Positions 16,694 to 41,300 of a DNA stretch of 42,553 nucleotides are shown piece after piece. Source of the DNA: a virus. The notes beneath the pieces were generated by a model that did not search any database, was not told the origin of the DNA, and saw only the letters and a program-made list of their open reading frames with translations. The stretch spans positions 1-42,553 of the IMG/VR virus record IMGVR_UViG_3300035034_000230. The stretch is one strand, 5' to 3'. Within the stretch, counting starts at the first letter, position 1, and every line of letters starts with the position of its first letter. A program made the position numbers and the translations under genes.

Positions 16694-17932
16694 ATGTCAG
16701 ATATGAAAAAACTAATAGAATCAATTGATAGATTAACAGAATGCCCACCAATGGAAGGTGGAACAATGCCACCAGCACCAACAAACCCAGGCAATCCAGT
16801 TACAGTAAGCGTAAGTCTTAATGCCAGCGGTATGGATCATGTTGCTGATCTTATGAGATTACTACAACAGGCAGGACTTGAGCAGGCTGGCCCAGTATCA
16901 GCACCAACTATGCCAATGCGTCAAGACATGGACAGACTACGTGCTATCGTAAGCGAACCAGAGATGGAAGCAGACGCTGCTTATGGCGACGTTATTACAG
17001 ACGATGAAAGCCTAGATGAAGCCGATGATGCTCAGTCACTTATGGGTCAAATTCGAAAAATGGCCAAGGGTGTAGAAACAAACCCAGACGAACAAGCTCA
17101 TCGCATTTTTGCTCAGCAAGTCGAGTCTAATCTAATTGATTTGTTTCAGATGACAAACAGCGAAGAAGTTAGAAATCTAATTAGACAAAACAAATCTGCA
17201 CAACGAGAAGTTGATCGTAGAAATGCTAATAATATTGCAACTACATTGTGGGATATTATGAATTCAAACGAAGGTCTGGAAGAGTACGACAACGAGCCAA
17301 ACCCAGAATACCAAGATCACAAGTACATGACCAAAGATCTAAGTGGTGGTCTTAACAGAGAAAAAGGTGCATATGCTGCGGCACAGCCAGGCGACAATGC
17401 TATGGCTGTAGAAGGTGTACCTGATCTAAGTCCTAAGTTTATTAAGCATCTACAAGTAACATTTGGCGACAAAGCAATATTATCTAGTAGTGAAACTCGC
17501 AAAATTGAAGATATGATAGATAAGCTGAGTATTGAAAATCTTAAAACTCTAGTTAGTGCGGATATTCCAAATGTAAGTGATATGGCAAAAGATTACTTGC
17601 GAAATAATACACCAGGCGGCATGAAAAATTACAGCGAAAATGACGATGATACAACATACATTATCAGAAGCAAGAATTCGCAAGCACAGAGCGAATTAGC
17701 AAGACGTGCTGGCACTGCGGGTGATGAAGATATGGTTGAAGCAATCAAGAAAACTCTAATGGCAGCACTTAGTGAAAAGAAAGCCAAGCCAGACTTCCTA
17801 GATGTTGACAAGGACGGCGACAAAAAAGAGCCAATGAAAAAGGCCCTTAAAGACGCAGGCAAAGGCGGAAGCAAGCCTAAAAAAGGTGAAGTACCGCCAC
17901 AGTTTAAAAAGAAAACTAACGAAGCAGTATAA
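16694..17932 (+). CDS. acidic protein of unknown function, possible internal virion protein
   Basis: A 412-residue hydrophilic protein starting 1 nt after the previous stop. The N-terminal third is Pro/Gly/Ala-rich, the middle is helical, and the C-terminal 60 residues are strongly charged, with KPDFLDVDKDGDKKEPMKKA. The last contains an Asp-rich DVDKDGD stretch that looks like an EF-hand loop. YDNEPNPEYQDHKYMTKDLS is probably the most conserved segment. No enzyme motif is visible. Location between terminase genes and composition suggest a head-internal protein, but this is not proven. Confidence 0.5.
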   Translation: MSDMKKLIESIDRLTECPPMEGGTMPPAPTNPGNPVTVSVSLNASGMDHVADLMRLLQQAGLEQAGPVSAPTMPMRQDMDRLRAIVSEPEMEADAAYGDVITDDESLDEADDAQSLMGQIRKMAKGVETNPDEQAHRIFAQQVESNLIDLFQMTNSEEVRNLIRQNKSAQREVDRRNANNIATTLWDIMNSNEGLEEYDNEPNPEYQDHKYMTKDLSGGLNREKGAYAAAQPGDNAMAVEGVPDLSPKFIKHLQVTFGDKAILSSSETRKIEDMIDKLSIENLKTLVSADIPNVSDMAKDYLRNNTPGGMKNYSENDDDTTYIIRSKNSQAQSELARRAGTAGDEDMVEAIKKTLMAALSEKKAKPDFLDVDKDGDKKEPMKKALKDAGKGGSKPKKGEVPPQFKKKTNEAV

Positions 17933-17936
17933 CACA

Positions 17937-18200
17937 ATGGCAGCACTCGCAAGACTACAAATGCAACACGATGCTGAAAAGAAATATAAAGACAGTATGT
18001 CGAAGAAAAAAGAATCAGCAGTCAGTGAAATATCAAGCGATCTAGCAAAGCGTTATACCAAAAATGCTAAGATGGATCGTGACTTCAACGACGATGATAT
18101 TAAGAGACAAGCAAAGTCGGGTCAAAGCACACAGGATATGCAGAGACGAAATTCTAAGAGAACCAAAGGTATTAATCAAGCTAAAAAGCGTATGGATTAA
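17937..18200 (+). CDS. small basic protein, function unknown
   Basis: An 87-residue Lys/Arg-rich protein starting 4 nt after the previous stop. An upstream in-frame TTG-type extension into the previous gene is ignored because ATG 17937 (AALARLQMQHDAEKKYK) is well placed. It is predicted to be helical and soluble, and its charge would allow nucleic-acid binding. It is followed by a strong terminator. Confidence 0.6.
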   Translation: MAALARLQMQHDAEKKYKDSMSKKKESAVSEISSDLAKRYTKNAKMDRDFNDDDIKRQAKSGQSTQDMQRRNSKRTKGINQAKKRMD

Positions 18201-18218
18201 TCTACAATGGATAATATC

Positions 18219-18247
18219 AAATAGGCTCTTCGGAGCCTATTTTTTTG
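18219..18247 (+). terminator. rho-independent terminator before the gp17 region
   Basis: Perfect stem ATAGGCTC / GAGCCTAT with a TTCG loop, followed by T7. Confidence 0.9.
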
Positions 18248-18255
18248 AGTAAATA
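18248..18255 (+). promoter_or_regulatory. late promoter of the terminase N-fragment
   Basis: AGTAAATA, then TATAC, then the ATG at 18261. There is no Shine-Dalgarno sequence, so the message is predicted to be leaderless. Confidence 0.55.
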
Positions 18256-18260
18256 TATAC

Positions 18261-18899
18261 ATGTCAAAATCACTAGACGGCGTACTAATTAAAAAAGCCA
18301 ACAAACAAGAAACGTATACAGAACAGCAGATTGCAGACCTACTGGCCTGTATGGATCCTGATGAAGGTTATTTACATTTTGCAAGACAGTTTGCATACAT
18401 CCAACACCCTGTAAAGGGGAAACTGTTGTTTGATCCTTATGAGTATCAACTACGCTTGATGCACAGTTATCACAATTATAGATTCAACATCAACATGATG
18501 CCTAGACAAACAGGTAAGACCACCTGTGCTGCTATCTATCTTGTATGGTATGCTATGTTCCATCCTGATCAGACCATACTAATTGCTGCACACAAATACA
18601 CAGGTGCTCAGGAAATTATGGCTCGTATACGCTATGTGTATGAAACTTGTCCAGATCATATACGTGCTGGTGTTACCAGTTACAATAAAGGCTCAATGGA
18701 ATTTGAAAACGGAAGCCGTATTGTAAGCCAAACAACAACAGGCAACACTGGTCGTGGTATGAGTATTTCACTACTGTATTGTTTAGACGGTGATACTACA
18801 ACTGTTAAGGTTAGAAATAAACAAACTCTTATAGAAGAAGAATTAACATTAGCAGAATTGTACGGTAAACTTACTGGTGCTGCTAGAATAATCACATGA
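18261..18899 (+). CDS. 17: terminase large subunit, fragment 1 (N-extein) + short N-intein
   Basis: Residues 1-173 are the N-terminal ATPase part of gp17. The Walker A-like motif RQTGKTT is at 82-88 and the segment ends SISLLY, the hydrophobic strand of Walker B. At Cys174 the sequence switches to a 39-residue N-intein beginning CLDGDTTTVKV and stops at 18897. The missing Walker B acids (DE) begin the extein of the next fragment at 20136. The product must be joined in trans to the proteins from 19800 and 21565. Joined exteins give 526 residues, compared with 610 in T4 gp17. The stop overlaps the endonuclease start (ATGA). Confidence 0.9.
   Translation: MSKSLDGVLIKKANKQETYTEQQIADLLACMDPDEGYLHFARQFAYIQHPVKGKLLFDPYEYQLRLMHSYHNYRFNINMMPRQTGKTTCAAIYLVWYAMFHPDQTILIAAHKYTGAQEIMARIRYVYETCPDHIRAGVTSYNKGSMEFENGSRIVSQTTTGNTGRGMSISLLYCLDGDTTTVKVRNKQTLIEEELTLAELYGKLTGAARIIT
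18780..18896 (+). other. split intein 1 (TerL-a), N-half
   Basis: 39 codons. Contains only intein block A (CLDGDT) and a short LAELYGKL helix. The block B His lies in the C-half, so the split is atypical, like AceL-TerL. Confidence 0.85.
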
Positions 18900-19825
18900 C
18901 AAGTTTGCATTTGTATAAATACTGTATGAACAAAAAAATAGAACAGTTTAAAAAACGTAATCGCAAACGTAATGCACATCTCTATCAGGTCAATAAATCG
19001 GAGGGAATTGACTACATAGTATGTCCGGTTTCGCAAGAACGAGTTTCGATGATTAAATCGTCGTACATTGAACGGGTATTAAGTATGACTGTAGACGTAT
19101 ATGATGCGTTGTATCCGGGTGTTAGAGGTGTCAGTGAAACAAGAAAGAAGAATATTAAAAAAGGTTTACAGCAAGTAGACCCTGTAACAGGAAAAACTAA
19201 GTACGAGATAAGTCAAGAAAAATCTAGAAAAGTATTATTGGAAACTGACGAAAACGGCGTTTCCGGATATAAAAGAAAAGGCGAAAAGACTCGTGCAACA
19301 CATATGAAAAATATCGATGAGTTTGGCCGAAATGGTTATTCACAGCTTGCCTCGAAAGCCATTGTAAAAGGTAACACAACAAAGGCAAAAAAGGGACTAA
19401 TATTAGAGCCTAGTTTCCGCAACGAATATTACAGATATAAATCTGTTGTTTTATATGTTACAGAACAGTTTAGAGCCGAAATAACAACAGGCTATAAAAC
19501 TGGATTAGCTGGAACATTAGGTGCATATCATATTGATCATATGTTTTCGATAATAAACGGATACAAGAATCAAGTTAGTCCGCTACTTATAGGAAGTAAA
19601 TATAACTTAAAAATGATTCCTTGGAAGGATAATTTGTCAAAACATAGCTCTAGCAGTATTTCTTTTAATGAGCTACTGACTATCTCAAAATATAATGAGA
19701 AGCGATCTAGACAAGAATACTTTTATTTTTTAAATCTAATTGAGTTAGATTTAAAAAATAAAACACCTGTTTCCGGCGCCCATTTAATGGAAAGATTTTA
19801 TGAATCAAAACTATATACCAAATAA
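18896..19825 (+). CDS. HNH-type homing endonuclease of intein 1
   Basis: A free-standing gene between the two halves of intein 1. The C-terminal part has HNH-like residues in AYHIDHMFSIINGYKN and KYNLKMIPWKDNLSKH (His-Ile-Asp-His, Asn, Asn, Lys-His). The middle is Lys-rich with DEFGRNGYSQLASKA, probably DNA-binding. ATG 18896 overlaps the N-intein stop; a second ATG at 18926 lies 4 nt after a TATAAATA late promoter and would give 299 residues from a separate late message. The 3' end overlaps the C-intein gene by 26 nt. Confidence 0.75.
   Translation: MTSLHLYKYCMNKKIEQFKKRNRKRNAHLYQVNKSEGIDYIVCPVSQERVSMIKSSYIERVLSMTVDVYDALYPGVRGVSETRKKNIKKGLQQVDPVTGKTKYEISQEKSRKVLLETDENGVSGYKRKGEKTRATHMKNIDEFGRNGYSQLASKAIVKGNTTKAKKGLILEPSFRNEYYRYKSVVLYVTEQFRAEITTGYKTGLAGTLGAYHIDHMFSIINGYKNQVSPLLIGSKYNLKMIPWKDNLSKHSSSSISFNELLTISKYNEKRSRQEYFYFLNLIELDLKNKTPVSGAHLMERFYESKLYTK
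18914..18921 (+). promoter_or_regulatory. late promoter inside the intein-1 endonuclease start region
   Basis: Perfect TATAAATA followed by CTGT and ATG 18926. If used, the message starts at or beside that ATG. Confidence 0.65.
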
Positions 19826-20135
19826 TGAATACGAAATACTAACACCTAACGGGTGGGAAGATTTTGAAGGAGTAATATTTAACGAAAATGCAAATAAGCA
19901 TTCACGTAAAATTTATTTTGATGACAACAGCTTTGTAACAGCAACTAACGATCATAGATTTTTTTCTAATAAAAAAGAGATAAAAGTAGTTGACTTAAAT
20001 GTAGGAGATGTATTAGATTCCTATAATACTGTTAAAAAAATAATCAAACTTGAAGATTTAGTATTAGAGCATACATATGAAATTTTTAATGCCGAGAATC
20101 ATGTAATAATAGCAAACCAAATTAACTCACATCAA
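19800..20135 (+). other. split intein 1 (TerL-a), C-half
   Basis: 112 codons, containing block B (TATNDH) and blocks F/G. The last residue is Gln (SHQ|C) instead of the usual Asn. The +1 extein residue is Cys. Confidence 0.85.
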
Positions 20136-20537
20136 TGTGACGAATTTGCGTTCGTACAACCAAACATTGCTGAAGAATTCTGGACATCAATATCACCTAC
20201 ACTAGCAACAGGTGGTAGAGCTATTATTACTTCAACGCCCAACAGTGACGAAGATACTTTTGCTACTATTTGGAAGCAGGCTGAAAATAAGTTTGATGAA
20301 TACGGAAACGAATCAGAACTAGGTGTAAACGGGTTCCATGCGTTTAGAGCCAGTTGGGATGAGCACCCTGACAGAGATGAAAAATGGAAATCAGATGAAG
20401 TTGGACGTATCGGCGAAGAAAAATTCCGCAGAGAATACGGGTGTGTGACACGCAATACTATGATAACTTTGCAAGACGAATTTGGAAAAGAATTTGAAAT
20501 CACAATCGGTGAGTTATTTAATATGCTAGATAAATAA
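19800..20537 (+). CDS. 17: terminase large subunit, fragment 2: C-intein 1 + middle extein + N-intein 2
   Basis: Three parts are visible. Residues 1-112 are the C-half of intein 1, with YEILTPNGWEDFEGV, the block B motif TATNDH and the ending VIIANQINSHQ before Cys113. Residues 113-214 are the middle gp17 extein: CDEFAFVQPNIAEEF completes Walker B, and AIITSTPNS is the following coupling-type motif. Residues 215-245 are a second N-intein (CVTRNTMITLQD … LFNMLDK) ending in a stop. Both ends must splice in trans. The start has GGAAAG 5 nt upstream and lies inside the end of the endonuclease gene. Confidence 0.9.
   Translation: MNQNYIPNNEYEILTPNGWEDFEGVIFNENANKHSRKIYFDDNSFVTATNDHRFFSNKKEIKVVDLNVGDVLDSYNTVKKIIKLEDLVLEHTYEIFNAENHVIIANQINSHQCDEFAFVQPNIAEEFWTSISPTLATGGRAIITSTPNSDEDTFATIWKQAENKFDEYGNESELGVNGFHAFRASWDEHPDRDEKWKSDEVGRIGEEKFRREYGCVTRNTMITLQDEFGKEFEITIGELFNMLDK
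20442..20534 (+). other. split intein 2 (TerL-b), N-half
   Basis: 31 codons, starting at Cys after the extein sequence RREYG; block A reads CVTRNT. Another atypically short N-half. Confidence 0.85.
20529..20536 (+). promoter_or_regulatory. late promoter overlapping the intein-2 N-half stop
   Basis: GATAAATA encodes the final Asp-Lys and the start of the stop codon. It lies 31 nt before a GTG (20568) preceded by GGAGA. Confidence 0.6.
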
Positions 20538-20642
20538 TTGCACAACATTAATTTAGCGGAGAATACTGTGAGTGCAACATACATATTGTCAAAAATCGAC
20601 AACAATTAATATTGCAAAACAAATGGACAATTTACACGTCAT

Positions 20643-21581
20643 TTGAGAAAGTATGAGTTAACTTATCAAGATTATTATGAAACATATGTAACAAACACTA
20701 GCCCCAGATGTGCTTGCGGCCAAAGATTGGCATTTTATCAAAAAACTGAATCTTATGCAAACAGTTGCGGCTCGCCCGAATGCAGAGGCAAAAACATATC
20801 TAATACAAAACAAAACTGGACGACAACACAGCGTCAACAAGATCGACTAAACAAACAACGTGCAGCAGCCAATCGCACAGACGAGCAAAAAACACAGCAG
20901 GTTAAAAAAGCAAGACAAACCTTTAATGAAAAATACGGAGTTGACTGGGGGTCTACCCTTGATAGTCAAAAAACGAAATCAAAAAAAACTAAACTTGAAA
21001 AGTACGACAACGAAAAGTATAACAACAGTCGGCAGGCTAGTCTAAGTAGAATCAGTCGGTCTGTTGACCAAAAGAATAAAAGTAACGCACAACGAAGAAA
21101 AACTAACTTGGAAAGATACGGAGTTGAAAACGTATTGTTGACAAAATCAACTCCTAATAAGGTTAACAAAGGCAACAGATCTATTAAGGAATATACATTG
21201 CCAAGCGGAACAACTATTGGAGTTAGAGGACACGAACCATTTGCATTGGATATACTATTTGGAGAAATGAATTATCAAGAACACGAAGTTGTAGTACACG
21301 ACGACTATTCAACCTATGCTATAGAAATATTTGAATACATGAACACAAACATGCATAATACAAAATATTATCCAGACATATACATCTCTAAAGAACACAG
21401 AATTATCGAAGTAAAAAGCCAATGGTGGTGGGATGGATACGGGGCAGAAAAGTATAGTTCAAGATTGTTGAATAATCTCAAAAAACGACAAGTAGTGATA
21501 GATAAAGGATATAACTATGAAGTATGGATATTTGAAAATAAATACACTTATAAGGTATTAAAAGATGACGCAGATTTTTAA
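20643..21581 (+). CDS. PD-(D/E)XK homing endonuclease of intein 2, N terminus probably damaged
   Basis: From TTG 20643 the frame encodes 312 residues. KYELTYQDYYETY and CACGQR…CGSPEC look like a zinc-binding N-terminal module. The middle is Lys/Gln-rich, and the C-terminal domain has YYPDIYISKEHRIIEVKSQ, a PD-(D/E)XK signature. The frame continues upstream through CKTNGQFTRHLR to a TAA at 20607; before that, still in frame, lies GTG 20568 with GGAGA 5 nt upstream. The original start was therefore probably 20568, with a stop now separating it from the rest. The 3' end overlaps the next C-intein gene by 17 nt. Confidence 0.65.
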   Translation: MRKYELTYQDYYETYVTNTSPRCACGQRLAFYQKTESYANSCGSPECRGKNISNTKQNWTTTQRQQDRLNKQRAAANRTDEQKTQQVKKARQTFNEKYGVDWGSTLDSQKTKSKKTKLEKYDNEKYNNSRQASLSRISRSVDQKNKSNAQRRKTNLERYGVENVLLTKSTPNKVNKGNRSIKEYTLPSGTTIGVRGHEPFALDILFGEMNYQEHEVVVHDDYSTYAIEIFEYMNTNMHNTKYYPDIYISKEHRIIEVKSQWWWDGYGAEKYSSRLLNNLKKRQVVIDKGYNYEVWIFENKYTYKVLKDDADF

Positions 21582-21906
21582 AGAAAACGTATCAAACTAT
21601 AAAGTGTTAACACCAAGTGGATTTCAAGATTTTGCCGGTGTAGCAATGATGGGAATACAACCGTTGTTAAGAATGGAGTTTGAAAGAGGCGCGGTTGTTG
21701 AATGCACATATGATCACAAATTTTATACAACACTAGAACACCACAAAGAAGCATGTGAAATAGAGATAGGCGATACAGTAATTACTACCGAAGGCAATAT
21801 AGCACTAATTAATAAAGTTGAACTAGGATATAGCGAACCTGTTTACGATCTAATAGAAGTAGCAAATGGACACAAATATTTTACAAATCGTATATTAAGT
21901 TCGAAC
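21565..21906 (+). other. split intein 2 (TerL-b), C-half
   Basis: 114 codons, ending ILSSN|C: terminal Asn, penultimate Ser, +1 Cys. Block B His is in TYDH. Confidence 0.85.
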
Positions 21907-22662
21907 TGCGAATTCCTGGTATTTGACGAAACGCTGATCAGCAGTCTTAAATTAGCTGTAATGGAAGGTGCTATTCCACAGATCAACATGGGGCAAACTC
22001 GTTGGTATAAAAAGCCAACCAGCCAGTATACCTATTGTGTAGCACTGGACCCTAGTATGGGCACCGGCGGCGACCATGCTGCTATACAGGTATTTGAATT
22101 GCCCTCATATGAACAGGTGGCTGAATGGCAACACAACACCACAGCTATCCCTGGCCAGATCAGAGTTATGGCAGATATCTGTAAATATATCGCAGACGAA
22201 ACCGGCAACCCTAACGGAATTTATTGGAGCGTGGAGAACAATGGTATAGGCGAGGCCGCCCTGATTGTTATAAACGACTTTAGCGAAGAAAACATTCCAG
22301 GATTGTTTATCAGTGAGCCCATACGCAAAGGACATGTTCGTAAATTCCGTAAAGGATTTAATACTACACACAGTTCGAAAATCACTGCCTGTAGTCGACT
22401 AAAGACCATGATAGAAAATGATAAGATGTTGATACGTTCAAAGCCTCTTATATCAGAACTCAAAGGATATGTAGCAACAGGCAGCAGCTTCCAAGCCAAA
22501 ACGGGCATGGGCGATGACTTAGTAAGTGCTACACTATTGATCTTAAGAATGATGACAGTATTAAAAGATTGGGACCCAAGAGTCTACAACACGTTTACAC
22601 AGGCTGATCATGATGACAATTATGAGCCGCCCATGCCAATCTTTATAAGCACAGGATATTAA
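21565..22662 (+). CDS. 17: terminase large subunit, fragment 3: C-intein 2 + C-terminal extein
   Basis: Residues 1-114 are the C-half of intein 2 (YKVLTPSGFQDFAGV, then ECTYDH as block B, ending FTNRILSSN). Cys115 starts the C-terminal 251 residues of gp17. CEFLVFDETLISS resumes the extein interrupted after RREYG, and the RNase H-fold nuclease motifs follow: CVALDPSMGTGGDHAA, YWSVENNGIGEA and GMGDDLVSATLL. This domain cuts packaged DNA. The stop overlaps the late promoter of the next gene. Confidence 0.9.
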   Translation: MTQIFKENVSNYKVLTPSGFQDFAGVAMMGIQPLLRMEFERGAVVECTYDHKFYTTLEHHKEACEIEIGDTVITTEGNIALINKVELGYSEPVYDLIEVANGHKYFTNRILSSNCEFLVFDETLISSLKLAVMEGAIPQINMGQTRWYKKPTSQYTYCVALDPSMGTGGDHAAIQVFELPSYEQVAEWQHNTTAIPGQIRVMADICKYIADETGNPNGIYWSVENNGIGEAALIVINDFSEENIPGLFISEPIRKGHVRKFRKGFNTTHSSKITACSRLKTMIENDKMLIRSKPLISELKGYVATGSSFQAKTGMGDDLVSATLLILRMMTVLKDWDPRVYNTFTQADHDDNYEPPMPIFISTGY

Positions 22663-22668
22663 TAAATA
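22661..22668 (+). promoter_or_regulatory. late promoter overlapping the terminase stop
   Basis: AATAAATA, CAAT, then ATG 22673; predicted leaderless message. Confidence 0.6.
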
Positions 22669-22672
22669 CAAT

Positions 22673-24721
22673 ATGGCAGAGTTTGATAAAATAGGTGAAG
22701 ACCTCTTCAACAAGATACGTGGACGCTTTCCCAGTGTTACTATAGGTGATGCTGAAGGTAATGTTACCAACGAGCCAAACACAGCTCGATTTTTCGATTT
22801 TGATTACAAAACTGGTGAGAGAACACTGGGCAAGGTCAGTGTTAGTGTATCAGAGGATGACGGGTTAACTGTTATCTACTCAAAAGATTTTATTCAAAAC
22901 GAAGACGAATCAACACAGGGCGAATGGTACAATTTTTTAAAAGAACTCAGAGTCTTTAGTAAAAAGCGTATGATGGATTTCAGTGTTAGAGACATCAACA
23001 AATCAAATCTCAACAAAAGAGATTATCAATTTTTAGCAAATCGTTCCGAGGACGGCAAAATGACAGAATCAAGATTATATGGCTCATCACGTATAAGCTA
23101 TCAAAAGTTTGACAATTCGAGATTAGTTATCAAACATACAGAAAGCATCAATGCTGAAAACGCTGGCGGACGCACACAAAAGATAGGCACTATCTATATT
23201 GAAAGCGGCGACGGCGAAAGGTTTCGTTATCCGTATAAACATCTAAGTGGTGCTAGAGCAATGGCACGTCACGTAAGTGAAGGCGGCAAACCATACGATG
23301 ATTTCGGCGGACACATCACTGGTCTATCAGAAGAAATGGCGAAACTGCGCAAGTTCAAGACATACATGGGACGCAGTGCTGTGATGGCAGAAAGCCTATC
23401 TGGGTATATGGACATCGTCAAAGAGCGTATTAGCACAGTAAAGAAAACAATTGAAAATCTTCAAAAGCCAGCATACTACGCTGAGGCGTTTGGCAGTTTC
23501 GAAAAGCCTGTAATGGAAGACGTGCCCAGCGATGTGTCAGAAAATTGGATTGACGAATTAACCATCAAACAGTTCAACGAAGAACTAGCAGATGTATTTC
23601 CTTATATCTACAATCTAGTAAAAGAAGGCACCAAGGCCAAGTCACTGGGTCCAGATGATCTAGACGAGTCGGGTCTACAGTATTACACAGGTGTAAAAAA
23701 GCACGGCGAAGAATATATGATAAAGGCCGCTGCCGCAGGACGTGACGGCGCATCGCAAGAAGAGTTAGGCCGTTTGAAAGACAAGTACAGCAAAGCAGCA
23801 AAGAACAAAAAGACACAAGAAGAAATTGAACTAGAGCAGGCTTTTGAAAACACTATGGGACAGTTTTCAGATTCAGTATGTGAAGACTGTGGCAACCCAA
23901 GTTGGCACACACTAGGTATGACTGGAGAAGAAATCGAAGAAGGCGAACGTCACGGCAACGACGAGATATATGACAAGTGCTGGAAGGGATTCGAAAGAGT
24001 ACCTGGCACAACAAGAGGTGAAAAAGGCTCCTGCCGTAAGAAACCAAAAAAAGAAAGTGAAGGTGACGTAGAAGAAACTCCAACTACTAAATTAAATGCT
24101 GTAATTAAAAAATTAAATAGAGAAATATCCGCGCAAAAGCCGGCGCATGAAATAATTGATGCAATCGTTAGACTGATTAAACACCAAGATACTCAACCAA
24201 TTAAAGATCTTAGTGCAACTGATAAAAGCATACTTTTATCTATATTTAAAGATGCTGGAATTGATATAATGGATTATTGGGTTGGCGGTACAGGTAGCAA
24301 TTCTAATCCCAATAGCTCATATCCTATTGACTTAATGATGGGTCAGTTCGGCGAAGACGACACAGATGAAGGCAATGCATTTGCAAACGCTGTTCGTCAA
24401 GCTAAGATGAACGGCAAGAAAAAAGGCGACAAAGTCCAAGGTCCAGACGGCGATGAGATCACACTAGAAAAAGAACAGAAGACACCATTAAGCGAGTTCA
24501 TTCTAAGTTATTTTGACAGACAGTCAGGTCAGTTCCCCAAAGGCGAAACCGCAGTATTAACTATGATTGAAAAGGACTACGGCGAAGAGTTCATAGAACC
24601 CGCAAAGGCGTTTATAGAACAGATAAACAATCTCGTAGCAGAACGTTTTGGTTATAGAGAGCCAGACATTCAAGAAGACAATTACGAACTAGGTCACATC
24701 TCAAGGTTAGCGGGTCTTTGA
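22673..24721 (+). CDS. large protein of unknown function with a Cys-rich module
   Basis: A 682-residue protein with its own late promoter. The first 200 residues are alpha/beta with KELRVFSKKRMMDFSVRDIN and IGTIYIESGDGERFRYPYKH. The middle is helical and charged. At about residues 400-460 a Cys/His module (CEDCGNPSWHT … CWKGFERVPG … GSCRKK) could bind zinc. The C-terminal part has LSEFILSYFDRQSGQFPKGE. No enzyme family is recognised. Late expression and size suggest a virion or DNA-associated protein. Confidence 0.6.
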   Translation: MAEFDKIGEDLFNKIRGRFPSVTIGDAEGNVTNEPNTARFFDFDYKTGERTLGKVSVSVSEDDGLTVIYSKDFIQNEDESTQGEWYNFLKELRVFSKKRMMDFSVRDINKSNLNKRDYQFLANRSEDGKMTESRLYGSSRISYQKFDNSRLVIKHTESINAENAGGRTQKIGTIYIESGDGERFRYPYKHLSGARAMARHVSEGGKPYDDFGGHITGLSEEMAKLRKFKTYMGRSAVMAESLSGYMDIVKERISTVKKTIENLQKPAYYAEAFGSFEKPVMEDVPSDVSENWIDELTIKQFNEELADVFPYIYNLVKEGTKAKSLGPDDLDESGLQYYTGVKKHGEEYMIKAAAAGRDGASQEELGRLKDKYSKAAKNKKTQEEIELEQAFENTMGQFSDSVCEDCGNPSWHTLGMTGEEIEEGERHGNDEIYDKCWKGFERVPGTTRGEKGSCRKKPKKESEGDVEETPTTKLNAVIKKLNREISAQKPAHEIIDAIVRLIKHQDTQPIKDLSATDKSILLSIFKDAGIDIMDYWVGGTGSNSNPNSSYPIDLMMGQFGEDDTDEGNAFANAVRQAKMNGKKKGDKVQGPDGDEITLEKEQKTPLSEFILSYFDRQSGQFPKGETAVLTMIEKDYGEEFIEPAKAFIEQINNLVAERFGYREPDIQEDNYELGHISRLAGL

Positions 24722-27235: not shown

Positions 27236-27690
27236 TGGGATGGTATTCAGAAGTATCGAGAGATATTTCACGTATTCCCGAAGCAATACAATACTTCGAA
27301 GACGAGCTGGCAACAGCTCGTCTAGAAGTTAAAATAAAAGGTAGTATTGAACGAGCCGCAGCAGAAATGCCAGGCCTAGTTGAACAAAGATTTAATCAAC
27401 TACAAGAAATTGAAGCAATACTAGAATACCTCAACATAGAACTGCGCAGACTACGCAGTTCGTTCTTTAAAAAATATCTTGAGAATTATCAACGAGCACT
27501 GAGCAGTCGTGACGTTGAAAAATATGTAGACGGTGAAGCAGATGTAGTTGACTACGAAAAGATCATCAACGAGTTTGCGCTGATGCGTAACAAATGGTTA
27601 GGTGTTCTCAAAGCACTTGACTCAAAGGGTTTCTCTATCAATAATGTAATTAAACTGCGGTGTGCAGGAATGGAAGATGCCTCGGTTTGA
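27235..27690 (+). CDS. uvsY: recombination mediator UvsY
   Basis: A 151-residue helical protein whose position after uvsX and C-terminal pattern WLGVLKALDSKGFSINNVIKLR fit T4 UvsY (WGILLDFCSGALDAIKSRGFAIKHI). UvsY loads UvsX onto gp32-coated ssDNA. The N-terminal part has a long charged helix with QLQEIEAILEYLNIELRRLR. The last 13 codons (ending CAGMEDASV) have a second, diverged copy after the downstream endonuclease at 28528-28566, so the present 3' end may have been brought in with the mobile gene. Confidence 0.78.
   Translation: MGWYSEVSRDISRIPEAIQYFEDELATARLEVKIKGSIERAAAEMPGLVEQRFNQLQEIEAILEYLNIELRRLRSSFFKKYLENYQRALSSRDVEKYVDGEADVVDYEKIINEFALMRNKWLGVLKALDSKGFSINNVIKLRCAGMEDASV
27652..27690 (+). 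repeat. uvsY 3' end, copy 1 of a direct repeat
   Basis: 39 nt coding KLRCAGMEDASV-stop. It matches 28528-28566 at 26 of 39 positions, including a 14-nt identical core (GCAGGAATGGAAGA). Confidence 0.85.
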
Positions 27691-27719
27691 TAAATACACT
27701 AGACAAAAGGTATTTATCA
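27688..27719 (+). promoter_or_regulatory. late promoter embedded in an RNA hairpin at the endonuclease start
   Basis: TGATAAATAC (27688-27697) and GTATTTATCA (27710-27719) are perfect 10-bp complements around a 12-nt loop. The 5' arm contains the GATAAATA late promoter (27689-27696) and the uvsY stop; the 3' arm ends with the A of the endonuclease ATG, and the AAAAGG ribosome site lies at the loop edge. Read-through RNA could fold and hide the start, while RNA begun at the late promoter would lack the 5' arm. Confidence 0.75.
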
Positions 27720-28528
27720 TGAATAATTATTATGTTTATAAACTCGTAGATCCTAGAACTAATATGCCATTCTACGTGGGTAAAGGTAAAGATGCTCGTG
27801 CGTTTAAACACTTAAAAAATAGTTCTAAAACTTGTAATCCTCGCAAGGATAAAATAATAAATGAAATTTTTTCTTGCGAGTTATCTCCTATCGTAGATAT
27901 TTTTTTAAAAAATTTAGACGAAGAAACAGCCTACAAATTAGAAGAAGAACTTATTTTAGAGTTAGGTCGTATCGGAAAAGAACCAAATGGAATATTAACA
28001 AATATAACGATACACTCCCAGCCTCCGTCTCAAAAAGGCAAAACTAGAGTGTTTACTGAAGATCACAAACAAAAGATTTCTAATTCTTTAAAAGGAAAAT
28101 CCAAAACATATCAATCTTGGCAAACAGGGTTAACTAAAGAGACCGATGAAAGAATTGCTAAGATGGCAGAAAAAAGAAGCCAAACAGGAAATTCTCATCA
28201 AATAGGAATGAAATACTCTCAAGAAAGAATTAATAAAATTAGAAATAAATTAAAAGGCAGAACTGTTTCTTCTGAACAGAGAGAAAAAATGAGTCTTGCT
28301 AAAAAAGGCAGAACCTGGGAGGAAATATTCGGTAAAGACGGTGCAGAACAAAGACGAAAAAATTCTTTAAAAGGCGGAAATCACCCCAATGCTAAACAAA
28401 TAAATACACCAGAAGGTATATTTGAAACAGTGACAACAGCATCTAATTATTTTAATGTTTCTGATTATACTATTAGACAAAGATGCAAAAGCGACAAAGA
28501 ACGTTGGAAAGAATGGCAATACATTTAA
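27719..28528 (+). CDS. GIY-YIG homing endonuclease with NUMOD3 and NUMOD1-type motifs
   Basis: A 269-residue free-standing endonuclease. The N-terminal catalytic domain has NNYYVYKLVDPRTNMPFYVG (a YVY…YVG form of GIY-YIG), then Arg in KGKDARAF and Glu in KLEEELILELGR. The middle has repeated NUMOD3-like segments (FTEDHKQKISNSLKGKS; SQERINKIRNKLKGR; SSEQREKMSLAKKGR). The end has a NUMOD1-like helix-turn-helix (TVTTASNYFNVSDYTIRQRC). The ATG at 27719 is preferred to 27662 because of AAAAGG upstream. It sits exactly between two copies of the uvsY 3' end. Confidence 0.88.
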   Translation: MNNYYVYKLVDPRTNMPFYVGKGKDARAFKHLKNSSKTCNPRKDKIINEIFSCELSPIVDIFLKNLDEETAYKLEEELILELGRIGKEPNGILTNITIHSQPPSQKGKTRVFTEDHKQKISNSLKGKSKTYQSWQTGLTKETDERIAKMAEKRSQTGNSHQIGMKYSQERINKIRNKLKGRTVSSEQREKMSLAKKGRTWEEIFGKDGAEQRRKNSLKGGNHPNAKQINTPEGIFETVTTASNYFNVSDYTIRQRCKSDKERWKEWQYI

Positions 28529-36439: not shown

Positions 36440-37657
36440 ATGCAGAAAATAGGCGTACACACAGTAGAAGATTGTTTAGAGATCCTTACAGGGCTCCAGA
36501 AGCATGATCTTGAATTTACAATAGAAACCAGCGATCGCAGCTTGATCCAAAGCATTGCTAGGCAAGTATTTCGAGGCACTGCGCTGACAGATCGTCAGTA
36601 CAGTCTTATGAAAGAAAAACTAGACAAATATAAAATTCAGTTTGAGAGTCAAGACATCATTGGTGTTGAACGTGCAGTTAGCAAACTGCGCAATCCTCTG
36701 AGAGAAATTGATCGCAGCAAATATATCACTGTTGTAGAACATCTAGAAGGTATTCCTTATCCTGCAGATGAACGCTGTAGATACATTAAAATTAGATTTC
36801 CTTTTAAAAAATCTGATATAGCACTGATTGATCAAATCAACAGCACCAAAGATTATCATCACAAAAAAGGTAGTCACGAACACTATTTTGTTTACAACGA
36901 ACATAATGTTTACAATCTGCTTTCTCGATTCAAAGACAAAAGCTATAAAATCGATCAAGAATTGGTTGACTTATTTGAAAAGATTCTAGACATTCGCAGT
37001 CGAGAACAGGACTACGTTCCGGGCATCTATAACAACGAACTGAAAAATATTCACCCTAGCGCAAAGGCAATTGCTGAAAGTGAAGTTGGCGCATTCGATG
37101 CTGACACTGTGTTGTTTTATGTGGACAGAAAATTTAGATACGGCATAGTAAACGTTGACCACAATGATGCTTCGTCTGTAATTGAAAAGATTGCCTATAG
37201 AAATGATGTAACCTATCAAAGTAAACCCAGTGAAGAATCACTGTCAGATATCTTATTGGCACTTCAAAATCTAAAAAGATTTCCTCTATTGGTTGTGCTG
37301 GAAAAGTCTCATGCTGAAAATCAGCTGTATGAGATGGCGAACTTTTATCGAGACATTTTACCCAATGAAGAACAGAGTGTGCTGTTTAGACAAGATGGCG
37401 ACAGCGGATTTAATCAGTTGGTTAAAGACCGCAGGCTAAACAATTGGGTTGACAGCAATACTAAAATAGTATACATTAGTAGTGACAAGTTACCTAAGCT
37501 GTTGATCAGTGGCGAATGGCAACCCTGTGTAACTTTTGGTTACACCAGCAGATTAGATCGAACCGTTGACTCTTACATACACAATAGATGTGATCTCATA
37601 GTGTATCGAGAGGATATGATAAGCCCCATGCGGAGATACTCACAATACTATGGCTAG
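36440..37657 (+). CDS. conserved protein of unknown function upstream of uvsW
   Basis: A 405-residue protein transcribed with uvsW; its end overlaps the uvsW start by 8 nt. Residues 1-75 are helical. Residues 100-170 (RCRYIKIRFPFKKSDIALID … HEHYFVYNEHNVYNLLSRF) resemble in pattern the short HARP-type domains found next to SNF2 helicases, but this is a weak resemblance. The C-terminal half is alpha/beta (FPLLVVLEKSH; TKIVYISSDKLPKLLISGEW) without Walker motifs and might be a degenerate helicase-like fold. Function is not assigned; an accessory role to UvsW is possible from the context. Confidence 0.5.
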   Translation: MQKIGVHTVEDCLEILTGLQKHDLEFTIETSDRSLIQSIARQVFRGTALTDRQYSLMKEKLDKYKIQFESQDIIGVERAVSKLRNPLREIDRSKYITVVEHLEGIPYPADERCRYIKIRFPFKKSDIALIDQINSTKDYHHKKGSHEHYFVYNEHNVYNLLSRFKDKSYKIDQELVDLFEKILDIRSREQDYVPGIYNNELKNIHPSAKAIAESEVGAFDADTVLFYVDRKFRYGIVNVDHNDASSVIEKIAYRNDVTYQSKPSEESLSDILLALQNLKRFPLLVVLEKSHAENQLYEMANFYRDILPNEEQSVLFRQDGDSGFNQLVKDRRLNNWVDSNTKIVYISSDKLPKLLISGEWQPCVTFGYTSRLDRTVDSYIHNRCDLIVYREDMISPMRRYSQYYG

Positions 37658-39311
37658 TTGTAAATTAATTATTGAAGATGAAGTTAACATTAAATTCGAA
37701 GGACTAGACGTAGACATCAGACGCAAACTGACCAACGCTCTCAAGTTTGAAGTACCTTATGCTAAACACATGCCTCAGTATAAGCTGGGACGCTGGGACG
37801 GCAAGGTTGCGTTCTTTGGTATCGGCGGTTCGGGCTATGTGAATCATCTTGATGTTATTGTTGACATCCTAACAAAAAACAAAGTAAACATTGTTGACAT
37901 AGATGATCGTAGACACCCTATACAGATCAACTTCGCTCCAGTTACTGAACGCTATTGGGCTGATCAAGATATACGCTGGCCCAAAGGACACCCAGATGCG
38001 GGCGAACTTATTATGCTTCGTGATTATCAAGTTGAAGCAATCAACAACTTCCTAGCCCATCCACAAAGCCTACAACAGATTGCTACTGGCGCAGGCAAAT
38101 GTCGAACTTATGATTCTACAATGGATATAGATGTAGGTAATTCTGATTTTGCTGAATATTTGCTAAATAAAGTAAGAAATAGCAACTGGAGCAATTCTAT
38201 GAACGTAGCAACTTTTTGTAAAACATATCAGCGAAAAATGTGGAAGTCGATGATTACTAGGAAAAAATTAGATTTCACCTTATTGGATGTAATAACGTTC
38301 AACAATGAGCAACTTTATTACATACCGTATAATGGATATCATAAATTTACAGTAAGTACTTCACAATGCTTAAAGTGTAATGCAGCGCTAGTTATCGGAT
38401 TTAGAAAAGATGAGTTTATAGTATCAACATGCAAATGTTCAGCAGATAACAAGAATTATGCTACTTTAGAAAAGTTATCAACTGTATTTCCTGTAAGTGA
38501 AGCAAATGACGTATTATCATCATTTGCAGAGCGAAAAACACGGAATTTACAAAATGTACTAACTCATTGGACATCGCGTGGACATACTCACGAGGACGCA
38601 GTACAATTAGTGTCAGACGTACAAGCGAGTCGATCGTCACTGTCACCTGCTGCACAGAAAGGTGCACGGGGGTATTCGATGAGAACCCCCGAATACTGGA
38701 TTAAGCAAGGGTATTCTAAATCAGACGCTGTGCAGAAAGTAAGTAATCTTCAAGTTACAAACGGCTTAGAGTTTTATGTTAACAGATATGGCACTGATGA
38801 AGGCAAAGTACAGTACGATAAGCGAATGACAGAATGGTTAACATCATACACTCGTGCTATGGAACTAGATCCTACAATTAATGAAAGAAAAATGGTCGGG
38901 TTTTGCAAAGCATCAAAAGAGTCGTTAAACGTGTTAATGCCAGTCTATGAAAAGTATAACGATAAAATTCGTATATACTTAGGCATTGACGGAAATACTG
39001 AATATTTTTTGCGCGACGACGATAGTATACGATTTTATGATTTTACGATACCCGAGCTTAAAATAATTGTTGAGTTTCATGGATCTAAGTTCCATGCTAA
39101 TGCAGAGTTATTATCTGAGCAACAACTGTTAGAATGGAAGAGCTTATTTTCAAATGAATCAGCAGACTTGGTTATTGCAAAGGATACTGTAAAGCGAAAA
39201 ATAGCAGAATGTCACGGATACACATTGTTAACAATTTGGGATACTGACGACGTTGACCAAGCAATTACTAAAATTACAAATTTAATAGAAGAAAAACTTA
39301 ATGAAATTTAA
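37650..39311 (+). CDS. uvsW: UvsW fragment 1 (N-extein) + N-intein 3 fused to a Vsr-like homing endonuclease
   Basis: Residues 1-150 are the N-terminal part of UvsW helicase (DNA-binding domain, Q-motif-like LRDYQVEAINNFLAH) ending in the Walker A sequence QQIATGAGK. Cys151 begins an intein N-half (CRTYDSTMDIDVG), and the frame continues without a stop into an endonuclease. That part has a zinc-ribbon-like CLKC…CKC, two repeats of the form GYSKSDAVQKVSNLQ, and a C-terminal Vsr/EDxHD-like core at about 460-545 (FYDFTIPELKIIVEFHGSKF; HGYTLLTIWDTDD). The protein has 553 residues. Trans-splicing would release the extein from a large intein-endonuclease polypeptide. Confidence 0.88.
   Translation: MASCKLIIEDEVNIKFEGLDVDIRRKLTNALKFEVPYAKHMPQYKLGRWDGKVAFFGIGGSGYVNHLDVIVDILTKNKVNIVDIDDRRHPIQINFAPVTERYWADQDIRWPKGHPDAGELIMLRDYQVEAINNFLAHPQSLQQIATGAGKCRTYDSTMDIDVGNSDFAEYLLNKVRNSNWSNSMNVATFCKTYQRKMWKSMITRKKLDFTLLDVITFNNEQLYYIPYNGYHKFTVSTSQCLKCNAALVIGFRKDEFIVSTCKCSADNKNYATLEKLSTVFPVSEANDVLSSFAERKTRNLQNVLTHWTSRGHTHEDAVQLVSDVQASRSSLSPAAQKGARGYSMRTPEYWIKQGYSKSDAVQKVSNLQVTNGLEFYVNRYGTDEGKVQYDKRMTEWLTSYTRAMELDPTINERKMVGFCKASKESLNVLMPVYEKYNDKIRIYLGIDGNTEYFLRDDDSIRFYDFTIPELKIIVEFHGSKFHANAELLSEQQLLEWKSLFSNESADLVIAKDTVKRKIAECHGYTLLTIWDTDDVDQAITKITNLIEEKLNEI
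38100..38180 (+). other. split intein 3 (UvsW-a), N-half
   Basis: Starts at Cys151, directly after the Walker A Lys. Block A reads CRTYDSTMDI. The downstream boundary with the fused endonuclease is uncertain; about 25-30 residues are intein-like. Confidence 0.75.
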
Positions 39312-39705
39312 CATACCAATAGGGGAACTAGCAGAGTCGATTGCGGAGTACAAAGGAGTACTATTAAACGATAACTGCGAAATTAATATTAAAGATCTTG
39401 ATTGTAAAGTTAATACACCATCAGGAACTGCTACTATTAATATTATAATTAAAAAAGAAAAGTTAGAAGGCATAAAACTATTACTTGCAAATGGTGTAGA
39501 AATAAAGTGTGCTAATAAGCATATATTAAGATATAATAATGCAGACGTATTTGCAGATTCATTAGCAATTGGCGACTCGGTAGAAACTATTAACGGGAAT
39601 GTTAAGGTTAGTAGTATTAACAATATTGACGATACTACATTTTACGATATCGGAATAGATGCACCGTACTTATATTATGATGCAGACGGAGTATTACATC
39701 ATAAT
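39301..39705 (+). other. split intein 3 (UvsW-a), C-half
   Basis: 135 codons; ends LHHN|T, the canonical His-Asn with Thr as +1 residue. Contains the block B-like ANKH. Confidence 0.85.
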
Positions 39706-40287
39706 ACAATTACCACAGCAACACTTTCACACATAAGCGAGCCTCATGGTCGTAGTCTAGTTATTGTTCCAAACAAATCACTTGTTGAACAGACTGAAGA
39801 AGACTACATCAACTGTGGGCTCGACGTAGGGGTGTATTTCGGAGACAGAAAGCAACTGGGTAAGACTCACACTATCTGTACTTGGCAAAGTCTAAACATT
39901 CTAGACAAAAGGCACAAGGACGGAGCAGCCGTACTATCACTGGCTGAATTTTTAGATGAGGTACGTACAATTATTGTCGACGAATGTTTTGCAGGCGACA
40001 CTCTTATCACAACACCAAGTGGTCAAGTGCCTATTAAAGATTTAAAGGCAGGCGACAAAGTAATTAATCTATGTGAAAAAACAAAACAATACAAAGAAGA
40101 TACCGTAGTTAAAGTTCATAAAAACTTAACACATAGTCAAAGTGAAAAAATGCTAGAGATAGAGTTTGACAACGGTATAAAAACTAAAGTTACTGCTAAC
40201 CATAAATTTTTAACAGACAATGGCTGGGTTAGGGCAGATCAGTTAACTGAAGATTTAGAAATTATTAACATAAATACATATAGCTAA
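39301..40287 (+). CDS. uvsW: UvsW fragment 2: C-intein 3 + middle extein + N-intein 4
   Basis: Residues 1-135 are the C-half of intein 3 (FNIPIGELAESIAEYKGV, block B region CANKHILRY, end DADGVLHHN). Thr136 completes the Walker A Lys-Thr, and residues 136-228 are helicase motifs Ia-II (SLVIVPNKSLVEQTEEDY; TICTWQSL; TIIVDE). Cys229 starts a second intein N-half of 100 residues (CFAGDTLITTPSGQ … TANHKFLTDNGW), ending at the stop. The start overlaps the previous gene by 11 nt. Confidence 0.9.
   Translation: MKFNIPIGELAESIAEYKGVLLNDNCEINIKDLDCKVNTPSGTATINIIIKKEKLEGIKLLLANGVEIKCANKHILRYNNADVFADSLAIGDSVETINGNVKVSSINNIDDTTFYDIGIDAPYLYYDADGVLHHNTITTATLSHISEPHGRSLVIVPNKSLVEQTEEDYINCGLDVGVYFGDRKQLGKTHTICTWQSLNILDKRHKDGAAVLSLAEFLDEVRTIIVDECFAGDTLITTPSGQVPIKDLKAGDKVINLCEKTKQYKEDTVVKVHKNLTHSQSEKMLEIEFDNGIKTKVTANHKFLTDNGWVRADQLTEDLEIININTYS
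39985..40284 (+). other. split intein 4 (UvsW-b), N-half
   Basis: 100 codons with block A (CFAGDT) and block B (TANH). This is the conventional split position, unlike inteins 1-3. It begins inside the helicase DECH motif (VDE|C). Confidence 0.88.
40269..40276 (+). promoter_or_regulatory. late promoter before the intein-4 endonuclease
   Basis: CATAAATA at the end of the N-intein gene, followed by AAGGAGA and ATG 40301. Confidence 0.55.
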
Positions 40288-40300
40288 AGGAGAAGTATTT

Positions 40301-41212
40301 ATGGCAAAACAATTTGATATAGAAAAGTTTAATAAAATTTTAAAAATAAATCATCAAAAACTGCAAGCAGAAAAAATAACTGGTAAAAAAGTTATCCTAT
40401 CAAATGGATTAATCCTTGAGACTGAGAAGGACGTTCGTCTTTGTAAGAACAGAGTGATGTCAGGAGATAATGTTTGGAAAGAAAATTTCGACATACTTTA
40501 CAGTATTAATAGTGATGAAAGAGAATTGGCCGAAAAAAAGTGTAGATCCTTGACTTCTGTGCAAGGCGGAATTAAATGCCAAGAAAAGCATGGAAAAAAA
40601 ATTAAATCTAACCTAAACACAGGAACGCCATGGAATAAAGATATGAAGGGAAATTATCCTTATTCTTATTCGCATTCTCCTGAAACAAAAGAAAAGATAA
40701 GTGTTGCTAATACTGGTGCAAAAAACGGCATGTACGGAACAATGATGACCGCAGAACAAAAAGAATACAGAAGTAACTTAATGAAAGAAAAAATTCTTTC
40801 AGGAGAGTTTACGCCAAATTCTAATAATAGAAATACTCATTGGAATTCTTATTATAGAAATAAAAAATACAGAAGCAGTTGGGAATCACTTTATCAATAT
40901 TTCGATCCTGATGCCGAGTATGAAACTTTAAGAATACCTTATGTGTTTGAATGCAAAGAACATATTTACATAGTAGATTTTGTTAATCATAAAACTAAAA
41001 CTGCAATTGAAGTAAAACCTAGAGAACTCTTTAATGACCAAAAAACACAAACTAAAATATCTACAGCCGAAGAGTGGTGCAATGCTAATGGATATAATTT
41101 AGTATTAGCAGATAAAGAATATTTTATAACTCGGCCAATGCCTGATGATTTGACCGAATTTGATACTAAAACACAAAATAAAATTAGGAAACTTTATGAA
41201 GTTAATCAGTAA
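40301..41212 (+). CDS. homing endonuclease of intein 4 with NUMOD3 and TnsA-like PD-(D/E)XK domains
   Basis: A 303-residue protein between the halves of intein 4, with AAGGAGA before its ATG. The middle has NUMOD3-like DNA-binding segments (HSPETKEKISVANTGAKNG; MTAEQKEYRSNLMKEKI). The C-terminal domain reads YRSSWESLYQYFDPDAEYE, RIPYVFE, IYIVDFVNHKTKTAIEVKP and EEWCNANGYNLVL. That order (Glu, Asp, Glu-X-Lys) is a PD-(D/E)XK nuclease core of the TnsA type and closely parallels the phage's own gp4 (15143). The 3' end overlaps the C-intein start by 17 nt. Confidence 0.82.
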   Translation: MAKQFDIEKFNKILKINHQKLQAEKITGKKVILSNGLILETEKDVRLCKNRVMSGDNVWKENFDILYSINSDERELAEKKCRSLTSVQGGIKCQEKHGKKIKSNLNTGTPWNKDMKGNYPYSYSHSPETKEKISVANTGAKNGMYGTMMTAEQKEYRSNLMKEKILSGEFTPNSNNRNTHWNSYYRNKKYRSSWESLYQYFDPDAEYETLRIPYVFECKEHIYIVDFVNHKTKTAIEVKPRELFNDQKTQTKISTAEEWCNANGYNLVLADKEYFITRPMPDDLTEFDTKTQNKIRKLYEVNQ

Positions 41213-41300
41213 AAAAGAAATCGAAAAGCCACATGAAACTTATAACCTTCATGTAGAAACAGACCATAACTATATTGCAAATGATGTTGTAGTTTCAAAC
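41196..41300 (+). other. split intein 4 (UvsW-b), C-half
   Basis: 35 codons; block F DHNYIAND and end VVSN|C. The usual penultimate His is Ser. Size matches conventional C-inteins such as those of DnaE. Confidence 0.88.

What the first reader, a model, noticed from the sequence alone, without database searches (positions are those of the whole stretch)
18261..22662. Large terminase encoded as three separate polypeptides joined by two split inteins
Seen: three reading frames carry consecutive parts of gp17 (173, 102 and 251 residues), with intein N- and C-halves exactly at each break and a homing endonuclease gene in each gap. Known: split inteins with free-standing endonuclease genes ('fractured genes') were described from marine metagenomes, and AceL-TerL is an atypically split terminase intein. 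Two such breaks in one terminase gene, requiring ordered joining of three proteins for an essential packaging motor, appear unusual.
Basis: partly seen in the sequence, partly recalled or inferred. Interest (0 to 1): 0.9.

Follow-up and report, generated by a model that had tools for sequence, protein, structure and literature searches.

The report
Phage packaging motor built from three pieces
An uncultured phage encodes its essential DNA-packaging enzyme, and also a DNA helicase, each as three separate proteins that must be stitched together by split inteins, a rare double interruption that turns out to have recurred in at least nine phage lineages.

Summary
In 18261-22662 a gp17-like terminase (TerL) is encoded as exteins of 173, 102 and 251 aa, interrupted by two atypically split inteins (39/112 and 31/114 aa), each with an endonuclease gene in the gap. 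Intact relatives read through both breaks base for base. A second assembly reproduces 10.3 kb of the locus with one mismatch, so it is no artefact. It is not unique: nine lineages have both sites split; some add a third intein at Walker A. A 327-kb contig holds no other TerL. The intein-1 cassette is 99-100% identical to that of phages whose flanking exteins are 63-92% identical: recent homing. Loci that lost the endonuclease stay split or are fused in frame, so splicing alone keeps the gene alive. HEN2 carries an in-frame stop. Trans-splicing is inferred, not shown. A new variant of the known 'fractured gene' kind.

The parts
18261..18779 (+). terL piece 1: N-extein (173 aa), Walker A PRQTGKTT, ends ...ISLLY
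   Evidence: Terminase_6N, PHROG 5989; aligned with intact relatives
18780..18896 (+). Intein 1 N-part (39 aa, starts CLDGDT); stop 18897-18899
   Evidence: insertion absent in intact relatives; N-terminal Cys kept in the homologues listed
18896..18921 (+). Echo of the homing target (copy of extein start DEFAFV) fused to TATAAATA (18914-18921)
   Evidence: PWM of 60 intein-less targets: 22.1 bits vs shuffle maximum 8.1, z 6.3; exact composite motif in 41 IMG/VR stretches, all at this site
18926..19825 (+). HEN1, HNH-like endonuclease (motif YHIDH..N..N..KH), real start probably ATG 18926
   Evidence: alignment of 21 homologues; PHROG 5104 9e-16; no PDB fold match
19800..20135 (+). Intein 1 C-part (112 aa), block B TATNDH, ends NSHQ|C; start codon overlaps HEN1 end, GGAAAG upstream
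   Evidence: CatC/gp41-1 matches; alignment of 6 homologues
20136..20441 (+). terL piece 2: middle extein (102 aa): Walker B CDEFAF, catalytic Glu, STPN motif
   Evidence: PHROG 36964; gp17 alignment through intact relative L005
20442..20534 (+). Intein 2 N-part (31 aa, starts CVTRNT); stop 20535-20537
   Evidence: insertion absent in intact relatives
20551..20567 (+). Possible echo of the site-C target (AATTTAGCGGAGAATAC) just before the HEN2 GTG start; overlaps a Shine-Dalgarno-like GGAG
   Evidence: local score p 0.01; PWM z 2.8-4.4 in 6 loci of the HEN2 family in about the same register
20568..21581 (+). HEN2 (DUF7487, PF24308); in-frame TAA at 20607-20609, so the open frame starts at TTG 20643
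   Evidence: PF24308 1.6e-27; stop absent in L051, L058, L091; dN/dS 0.09
21565..21906 (+). Intein 2 C-part (114 aa), block B ECTYDH, ends LSSN|C
   Evidence: CatC 1.4e-10, VidaL 0.0089; alignment of 5
21907..22662 (+). terL piece 3: C-extein (251 aa), nuclease domain
   Evidence: Terminase_6C 5.7e-10
37650..38099 (+). uvsW piece 1: N-extein (150 aa) up to Walker A ATGAGK
   Evidence: PHROG 16259 helicase; intact in 67 of 80 relatives
38100..39308 (+). uvsW intein alpha N-part (starts CRTYDST) fused in frame to an endonuclease-like stretch
   Evidence: insertion absent in intact relatives; present in L281
39301..39705 (+). uvsW intein alpha C-part (135 aa, ends LHHN|T)
   Evidence: VidaL 1e-4, gp41-1 0.0043; 100% DNA identity with L281
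39706..39984 (+). uvsW piece 2: middle extein (93 aa), ends IIVDE
   Evidence: PHROG 16 and ResIII
39985..40284 (+). uvsW intein beta N-part (100 aa, starts CFAGDT; canonical split position)
   Evidence: Intein_splicing 2.9e-10
40301..41212 (+). Endonuclease in the second uvsW gap (NUMOD3, TnsA-like)
41160..41300 (+). uvsW intein beta C-part (up to 47 aa, ends VVSN|C)
   Evidence: Intein_splicing positions 120-155, 0.0051; homologues in L259, L260, L281, L313
41301..42038 (+). uvsW piece 3: C-extein (245 aa), starts CHMAKAEV
   Evidence: T4 UvsW 2oca 4.1e-18

Best explanation
Two independent mobile elements, each a split intein plus its own endonuclease gene, sit in one terL gene: one immediately before the Walker B Asp-Glu, one just before the ATPase-nuclease linker. 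The gene is read as three proteins (Walker A half; Walker B and coupling motif; nuclease). Intein 1 joins pieces 1 and 2, intein 2 joins pieces 2 and 3, in either order, giving a 526-aa gp17-like motor; no piece alone holds both Walker motifs. HEN1 cuts intein-less terL so that the cassette is copied in by repair. A copy of that target site over a late-type promoter in front of HEN1 most likely lets HEN1 repress itself, as I-TevI does. HEN2 is probably defective in this population. Shown: arrangement, recurrence, transfer, conservation. Inferred: splicing, order, cutting, repression.
For: Base-exact junctions versus intact relatives. Second assembly identical. Nine doubly split lineages; at least 9 changes of that state on the extein tree. 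Splice residues kept: Cys1, TxxH, HQ|C or SN|C. Halves under purifying selection, dN/dS 0.14-0.36. A cis relative of intein 1 is predicted at pLDDT 89.6 and matches solved inteins including VidaL, gp41-1, NrdJ-1 and Cat. No other TerL in the 327-kb contig. Homing: intein-1 cassette 99-100% DNA identity to L085/L092, with 63-92% in flanking extein windows. HEN-less loci still split (L097, L127, L133, L150) or fused (L104, L118) with intact splice residues. Echo plus TATAAATA. AceL-TerL and GOS-TerL, of the same split type, splice in vitro (PMC11766414).
Against: No splicing, cleavage or repression was measured. Intein 1 ends in Gln, which can slow the last step (general knowledge). IntC1 and IntC2 are 28% identical and GOS-TerL/AceL-TerL parts can be exchanged, so wrong pairing that skips the middle piece is possible. 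The window is a 42.5-kb fragment, so an intact second terL elsewhere in this very phage is not excluded. HEN2 has a nonsense codon.
Confidence: 0.85

Rival explanations
1. Assembly or sequencing artefact: two intein-bearing variants or stray reads wrongly joined.
For: One of the supporting samples (3300028402) is broken into two contigs inside the intein 1 C-part (L083, L090), as mixed alleles would give.
Against: Contig 3300028413_000015 carries both breaks contiguously with 1 mismatch in 10,284 bp; eight other lineages have both breaks.
Confidence: 0.02
2. The three fragments work as a non-covalent complex, or the gene is dead, without splicing (like the genes-in-pieces NrdA of phage Aeh1, where an endonuclease split a gene and the parts assemble).
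For: Phage genes split by an endonuclease insertion that keep function without splicing are known (title of the Aeh1 ribonucleotide reductase paper in the reference list shown).
Against: Intein catalytic residues are kept even where the endonuclease is gone; breaks fall at the Walker B strand; in-frame fused cis inteins exist in sister loci; extein pieces are highly conserved.
Confidence: 0.08
3. The breaks are bridged by RNA splicing or frameshifting instead of protein splicing.
For: Phage terL genes with introns are known (ICP1, PMC10448857).
Against: No Rfam family, including group I introns, in 17500-23500; the inserts encode intein halves ending at the extein junctions.
Confidence: 0.02
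4. The echo before HEN1 is a fossil of how the endonuclease gene was inserted, not a working operator.
For: It is a copy of the downstream extein; no binding data; the start codon lies only 4-6 bases after TATAAATA, and TATAAATA is not enriched in the window (5 found, 4.9 expected).
Against: Conserved as DNA, mostly out of frame, across about 20 lineages, tied to HEN1 in all 41 exact matches, lost where HEN1 is lost; in L131 the echo follows its own target's variant TTGGC.
Confidence: 0.3

Closest known systems
Fractured genes of marine phage metagenomes (Dassa et al. 2009, doi 10.1093/nar/gkp095; text not held, known from citations and memory)
   Same: Enzyme gene broken by a split intein with a free-standing endonuclease gene in the gap, phage setting
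   Different: Here one gene is broken twice, giving three polypeptides; two such genes in one window
AceL-TerL, GOS-TerL and consensus Cat-TerL atypical split inteins (PMC11766414)
   Same: Terminase host; short N-part (25-37 aa) and long C-part (104-115 aa); here 39/112 and 31/114
   Different: Those were studied as single inteins; here two at different sites act on one protein; intein 1 ends in Gln
[quoted passage not shown]
   Same: Copy of the homing site upstream of the endonuclease gene, overlapping or abutting a late promoter
   Different: Those lie in group I introns; here in the gap of a split intein, with an HNH-like enzyme; binding untested
Neighbouring inteins in one gene: haloarchaeal MCM (PMC10643990) and mycobacterial DnaB (PMC6195587)
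   Same: Two inteins in one essential gene
   Different: Those are contiguous inteins in one polypeptide
Campylobacter phage CP21 terminase (NC_019507)
   Same: Cultured phage; terminase with several inteins, one split by an endonuclease gene
   Different: Two polypeptides, one split and two cis inteins; not three pieces

Membership tests
Split intein (atypical, TerL type) | N-part and C-part on separate reading frames at a precise extein junction | tested here: met
Split intein (atypical, TerL type) | Cys/Ser at position 1, block B TxxH, terminal Asn/Gln, Cys/Ser/Thr at +1 | tested here: met
   intein 1: C1, TATNDH, Q|C; intein 2: C1, CTYDH, N|C; conserved in homologues
Split intein (atypical, TerL type) | HINT fold | tested here: met
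   model of cis relative L104 of intein 1 matches solved inteins, best E 1.1e-07, VidaL 1e-06; intein 2 by sequence only
Split intein (atypical, TerL type) | trans-splicing activity | not testable with these tools
   needs protein expression
Fractured gene (Dassa 2009) | free-standing endonuclease gene between the two intein halves | tested here: met
   HEN1 and HEN2; HEN2 has an early stop
Fractured gene (Dassa 2009) | gene broken once into two polypeptides | tested here: not met
   terL and uvsW are each in three, hence filed as a variant
I-TevI-type autorepressed endonuclease | homing-site copy overlapping a late promoter upstream of the endonuclease gene | tested here: met
   HEN1: (promoter by motif only)
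I-TevI-type autorepressed endonuclease | protein binds operator and represses | not testable with these tools
   gel-shift or reporter needed
HNH endonuclease (HEN1) | HNH fold and motif | tested here: inconclusive
   motif conserved, but no significant fold or Pfam match
T4 gp17-type large terminase | Walker A, Walker B/catalytic Glu, coupling motif, RNase H-like nuclease | tested here: met

The most novel reading that the evidence does not exclude
One phage assembles at least two proteins (packaging motor and UvsW helicase) from three polypeptides each, using four mutually non-interfering split inteins, and the endonucleases that spread these inteins control themselves through copies of their own target site placed at their promoters.
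Probability: 0.5. Interest if true: 0.8.

Novelty: new variant of a known kind. Interest (0 to 1): 0.7.

Why it matters
It shows that essential phage genes tolerate double fracture and supplies a natural series (empty, cis, split with endonuclease, split without, fused) that bears on how split inteins arise and revert. The four inteins are ready-made candidates for natural orthogonal three-part protein assembly. The target-site echo extends the I-TevI self-control idea to split inteins.

Tried and rejected
Assembly artefact: rejected by an independent contig. RNA intron: no Rfam match. Intact backup terL: none in the 327-kb and other contigs searched. HEN1 fold by structure search: no match at E <= 0.001. 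Upstream ATPase-only TerL paralogue as a rescue: absent from this window. A first idea that HEN2 was frameshifted was replaced by a plain nonsense codon once relatives were aligned. The site-C echo was first thought as strong as site B; tests give only moderate support and it overlaps a ribosome-binding-like GGAG. Literature: the original fractured-genes paper is not held, and searches found no natural gene with two split inteins, which does not prove there is none.

Full report
1. What is there. The window is a 42,553-base virus record. Between 18261 and 22662, all on the plus strand, lie five overlapping or adjacent reading frames: terL piece 1 with the intein-1 N-part; HEN1; intein-1 C-part with the middle extein and intein-2 N-part; HEN2; intein-2 C-part with the nuclease extein. 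Extein lengths are 173, 102 and 251 aa, intein parts 39/112 and 31/114 aa. Extein parts match terminase families; an intact relative, L005, matches T4 gp17 (3ezk, 2.9e-50). Reading that alignment by residue, site B falls between the equivalents of gp17 Y253 and I254, just before the Walker B Asp and catalytic Glu, and site C between T353 and A354, a few residues before the linker to the nuclease (numbering inferred from the chain index).

2. It is real. In most of the nearest 80 terL loci the gene runs through both sites with no extra base. The near-identical contig 3300028413_000015 repeats the whole arrangement (1 mismatch in 10,284 bp); a third sample, 3300028402, has the same parts on two contigs.

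3. It recurs. Searches with the two intein C-parts and a mechanical classification show three insertion sites in this terL clade: A inside Walker A (PRQTGK|TT, contiguous intein), B (Walker B, intein 1) and C (intein 2). Nine extein lineages have B and C both split: the window, L091, L097, L099/L100, L106/L108/L111, L112, L126, L145/L149 and L175/L176; at least three of these (the L091 contig, L099, L175) also carry site A. Parsimony needs at least 8 changes at B, 11 at C, 7 at A and 9 for the doubly split state (quick tree, several long branches). In the 327-kb contig of L091, TerL is found only as these parts.

4. The inserts move. Against L085 and L092 the 1,356-base cassette at site B is 99-100% identical overall, while extein windows next to it drop to 73-88% on the left and 63-92% on the right; upstream of 18360 a second high-identity tract is seen. 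L084/L085 have no intein at site C, so the two elements travel separately. L106 and L110, nearly identical as TerL proteins, differ by the presence of the site-C cassette, cleanly inserted at the same position.

5. Splicing alone is kept. Loci that lost HEN1 remain split (L097, L127, L133/L141, L150; L099/L100 keep a remnant) or are fused into one contiguous intein (L104/L105, L118/L120). L104's C-part is identical in protein to that of split L033, and L118's nearly so to L114, so fusion by loss of the endonuclease gene is the simplest reading, though the direction is inferred. Splice-site residues are kept throughout, and dN/dS is 0.14-0.36 for the halves.

6. A target-site echo in front of HEN1. 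At the intein-1 N-part stop and before HEN1 lies TGACAAGTTTGCATTTGTATAAATA (window 18897-18921): a degenerate copy of the first bases of the middle extein joined to TATAAATA. A matrix of 60 intein-less targets scores it 22.1 bits against a shuffle maximum of 8.1; 17 of 20 HEN1-bearing loci tested score z 5-9 in the same register; loci without HEN1 do not. All 41 IMG/VR stretches with the composite pattern lie at terL site B after the N-part. The copy is in frame in L101, L112 and L113 and out of frame elsewhere, so it is conserved as DNA. T4's I-TevI has the same layout: an operator 15/20 identical to its homing site over its late promoter, which it represses (PMC2988022). I infer self-repression by HEN1. 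For HEN2 the matching signal is weaker, but two other site-C loci with different endonucleases, L126 and L154, show clear echoes (p 0.003 and 0.001).

7. HEN2 is damaged. An in-frame TAA lies at 20607 where L058 has Arg and L051 Lys; the near-identical contigs share it. The rest is under purifying selection (dN/dS 0.09), so the lesion is young or translation restarts at TTG 20643.

8. A second three-piece gene. 20 kb downstream, uvsW is broken at Walker A (ATGAGK|) and at DE|CH: frames 37650-39311, 39301-40287 and 41160-42038, with endonuclease-like sequence in both gaps. Of 80 relatives 67 are intact at both sites; L281 has both inserts, with 96-100% DNA identity in the inserts and 75-79% in the exteins. 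PHROG families 16259 and 9690 appear to contain intein-bearing helicase parts, so single-split uvsW is probably already in known phages. The window phage thus appears to need four split inteins at once; IntC1 and IntC2 are only 28% identical and the others are still less alike.

9. Known or new. Each intein is of a known type: AceL-TerL and GOS-TerL have 25-37 aa N-parts and 104-115 aa C-parts and splice in vitro (PMC11766414). Among cultured phages, CP21 has three terminase inteins in two polypeptides, and VP-1 and TB34 one split intein; none found has three pieces, at the sensitivity. I found no paper describing a natural gene with two split inteins, but the founding paper is not in the library. 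I therefore file it as a new variant of fractured genes.

Noticed in passing
window 37650-42038: uvsW helicase gene also encoded as three polypeptides with two split inteins, with horizontally shared cassettes (L281).
   Followed up: yes
L051 1941-2720; also L100, L115, L116, L124: An intein-free ATPase-only TerL paralogue (about 40% identity, no nuclease domain) lies directly upstream of the intein-bearing terL.
   Followed up: partly
L104 790-880 and L118 5940-6020: The scars where the endonuclease gene was lost and the intein fused contain near-perfect inverted repeats.
   Followed up: no
L203, L214, L224, L227, L236, L240: The same intein-1 N-part, echo and first 171 aa of HEN1 are combined with a different nuclease end and a different intein C-part, suggesting module exchange.
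   Followed up: no
L091 283-3280: About 3 kb of unrelated minus-strand genes lie between the intein-1 N-part and HEN1 in the 327-kb phage contig.
   Followed up: no
window 18003-18360 versus L085: A second tract of 93-100% identity upstream of and into terL, separated from the intein tract by a 73-88% stretch: mosaic recombination.
   Followed up: partly
L196 1038-5324 (Campylobacter phage CP21): Cultured phage terminase with three inteins; the region holding a split C-part and another whole intein is partly unannotated in the public record.
   Followed up: partly
window 27662-28528: GIY-YIG/NUMOD3 free-standing endonuclease with an I-TevI-like DNA-binding domain.
   Followed up: no
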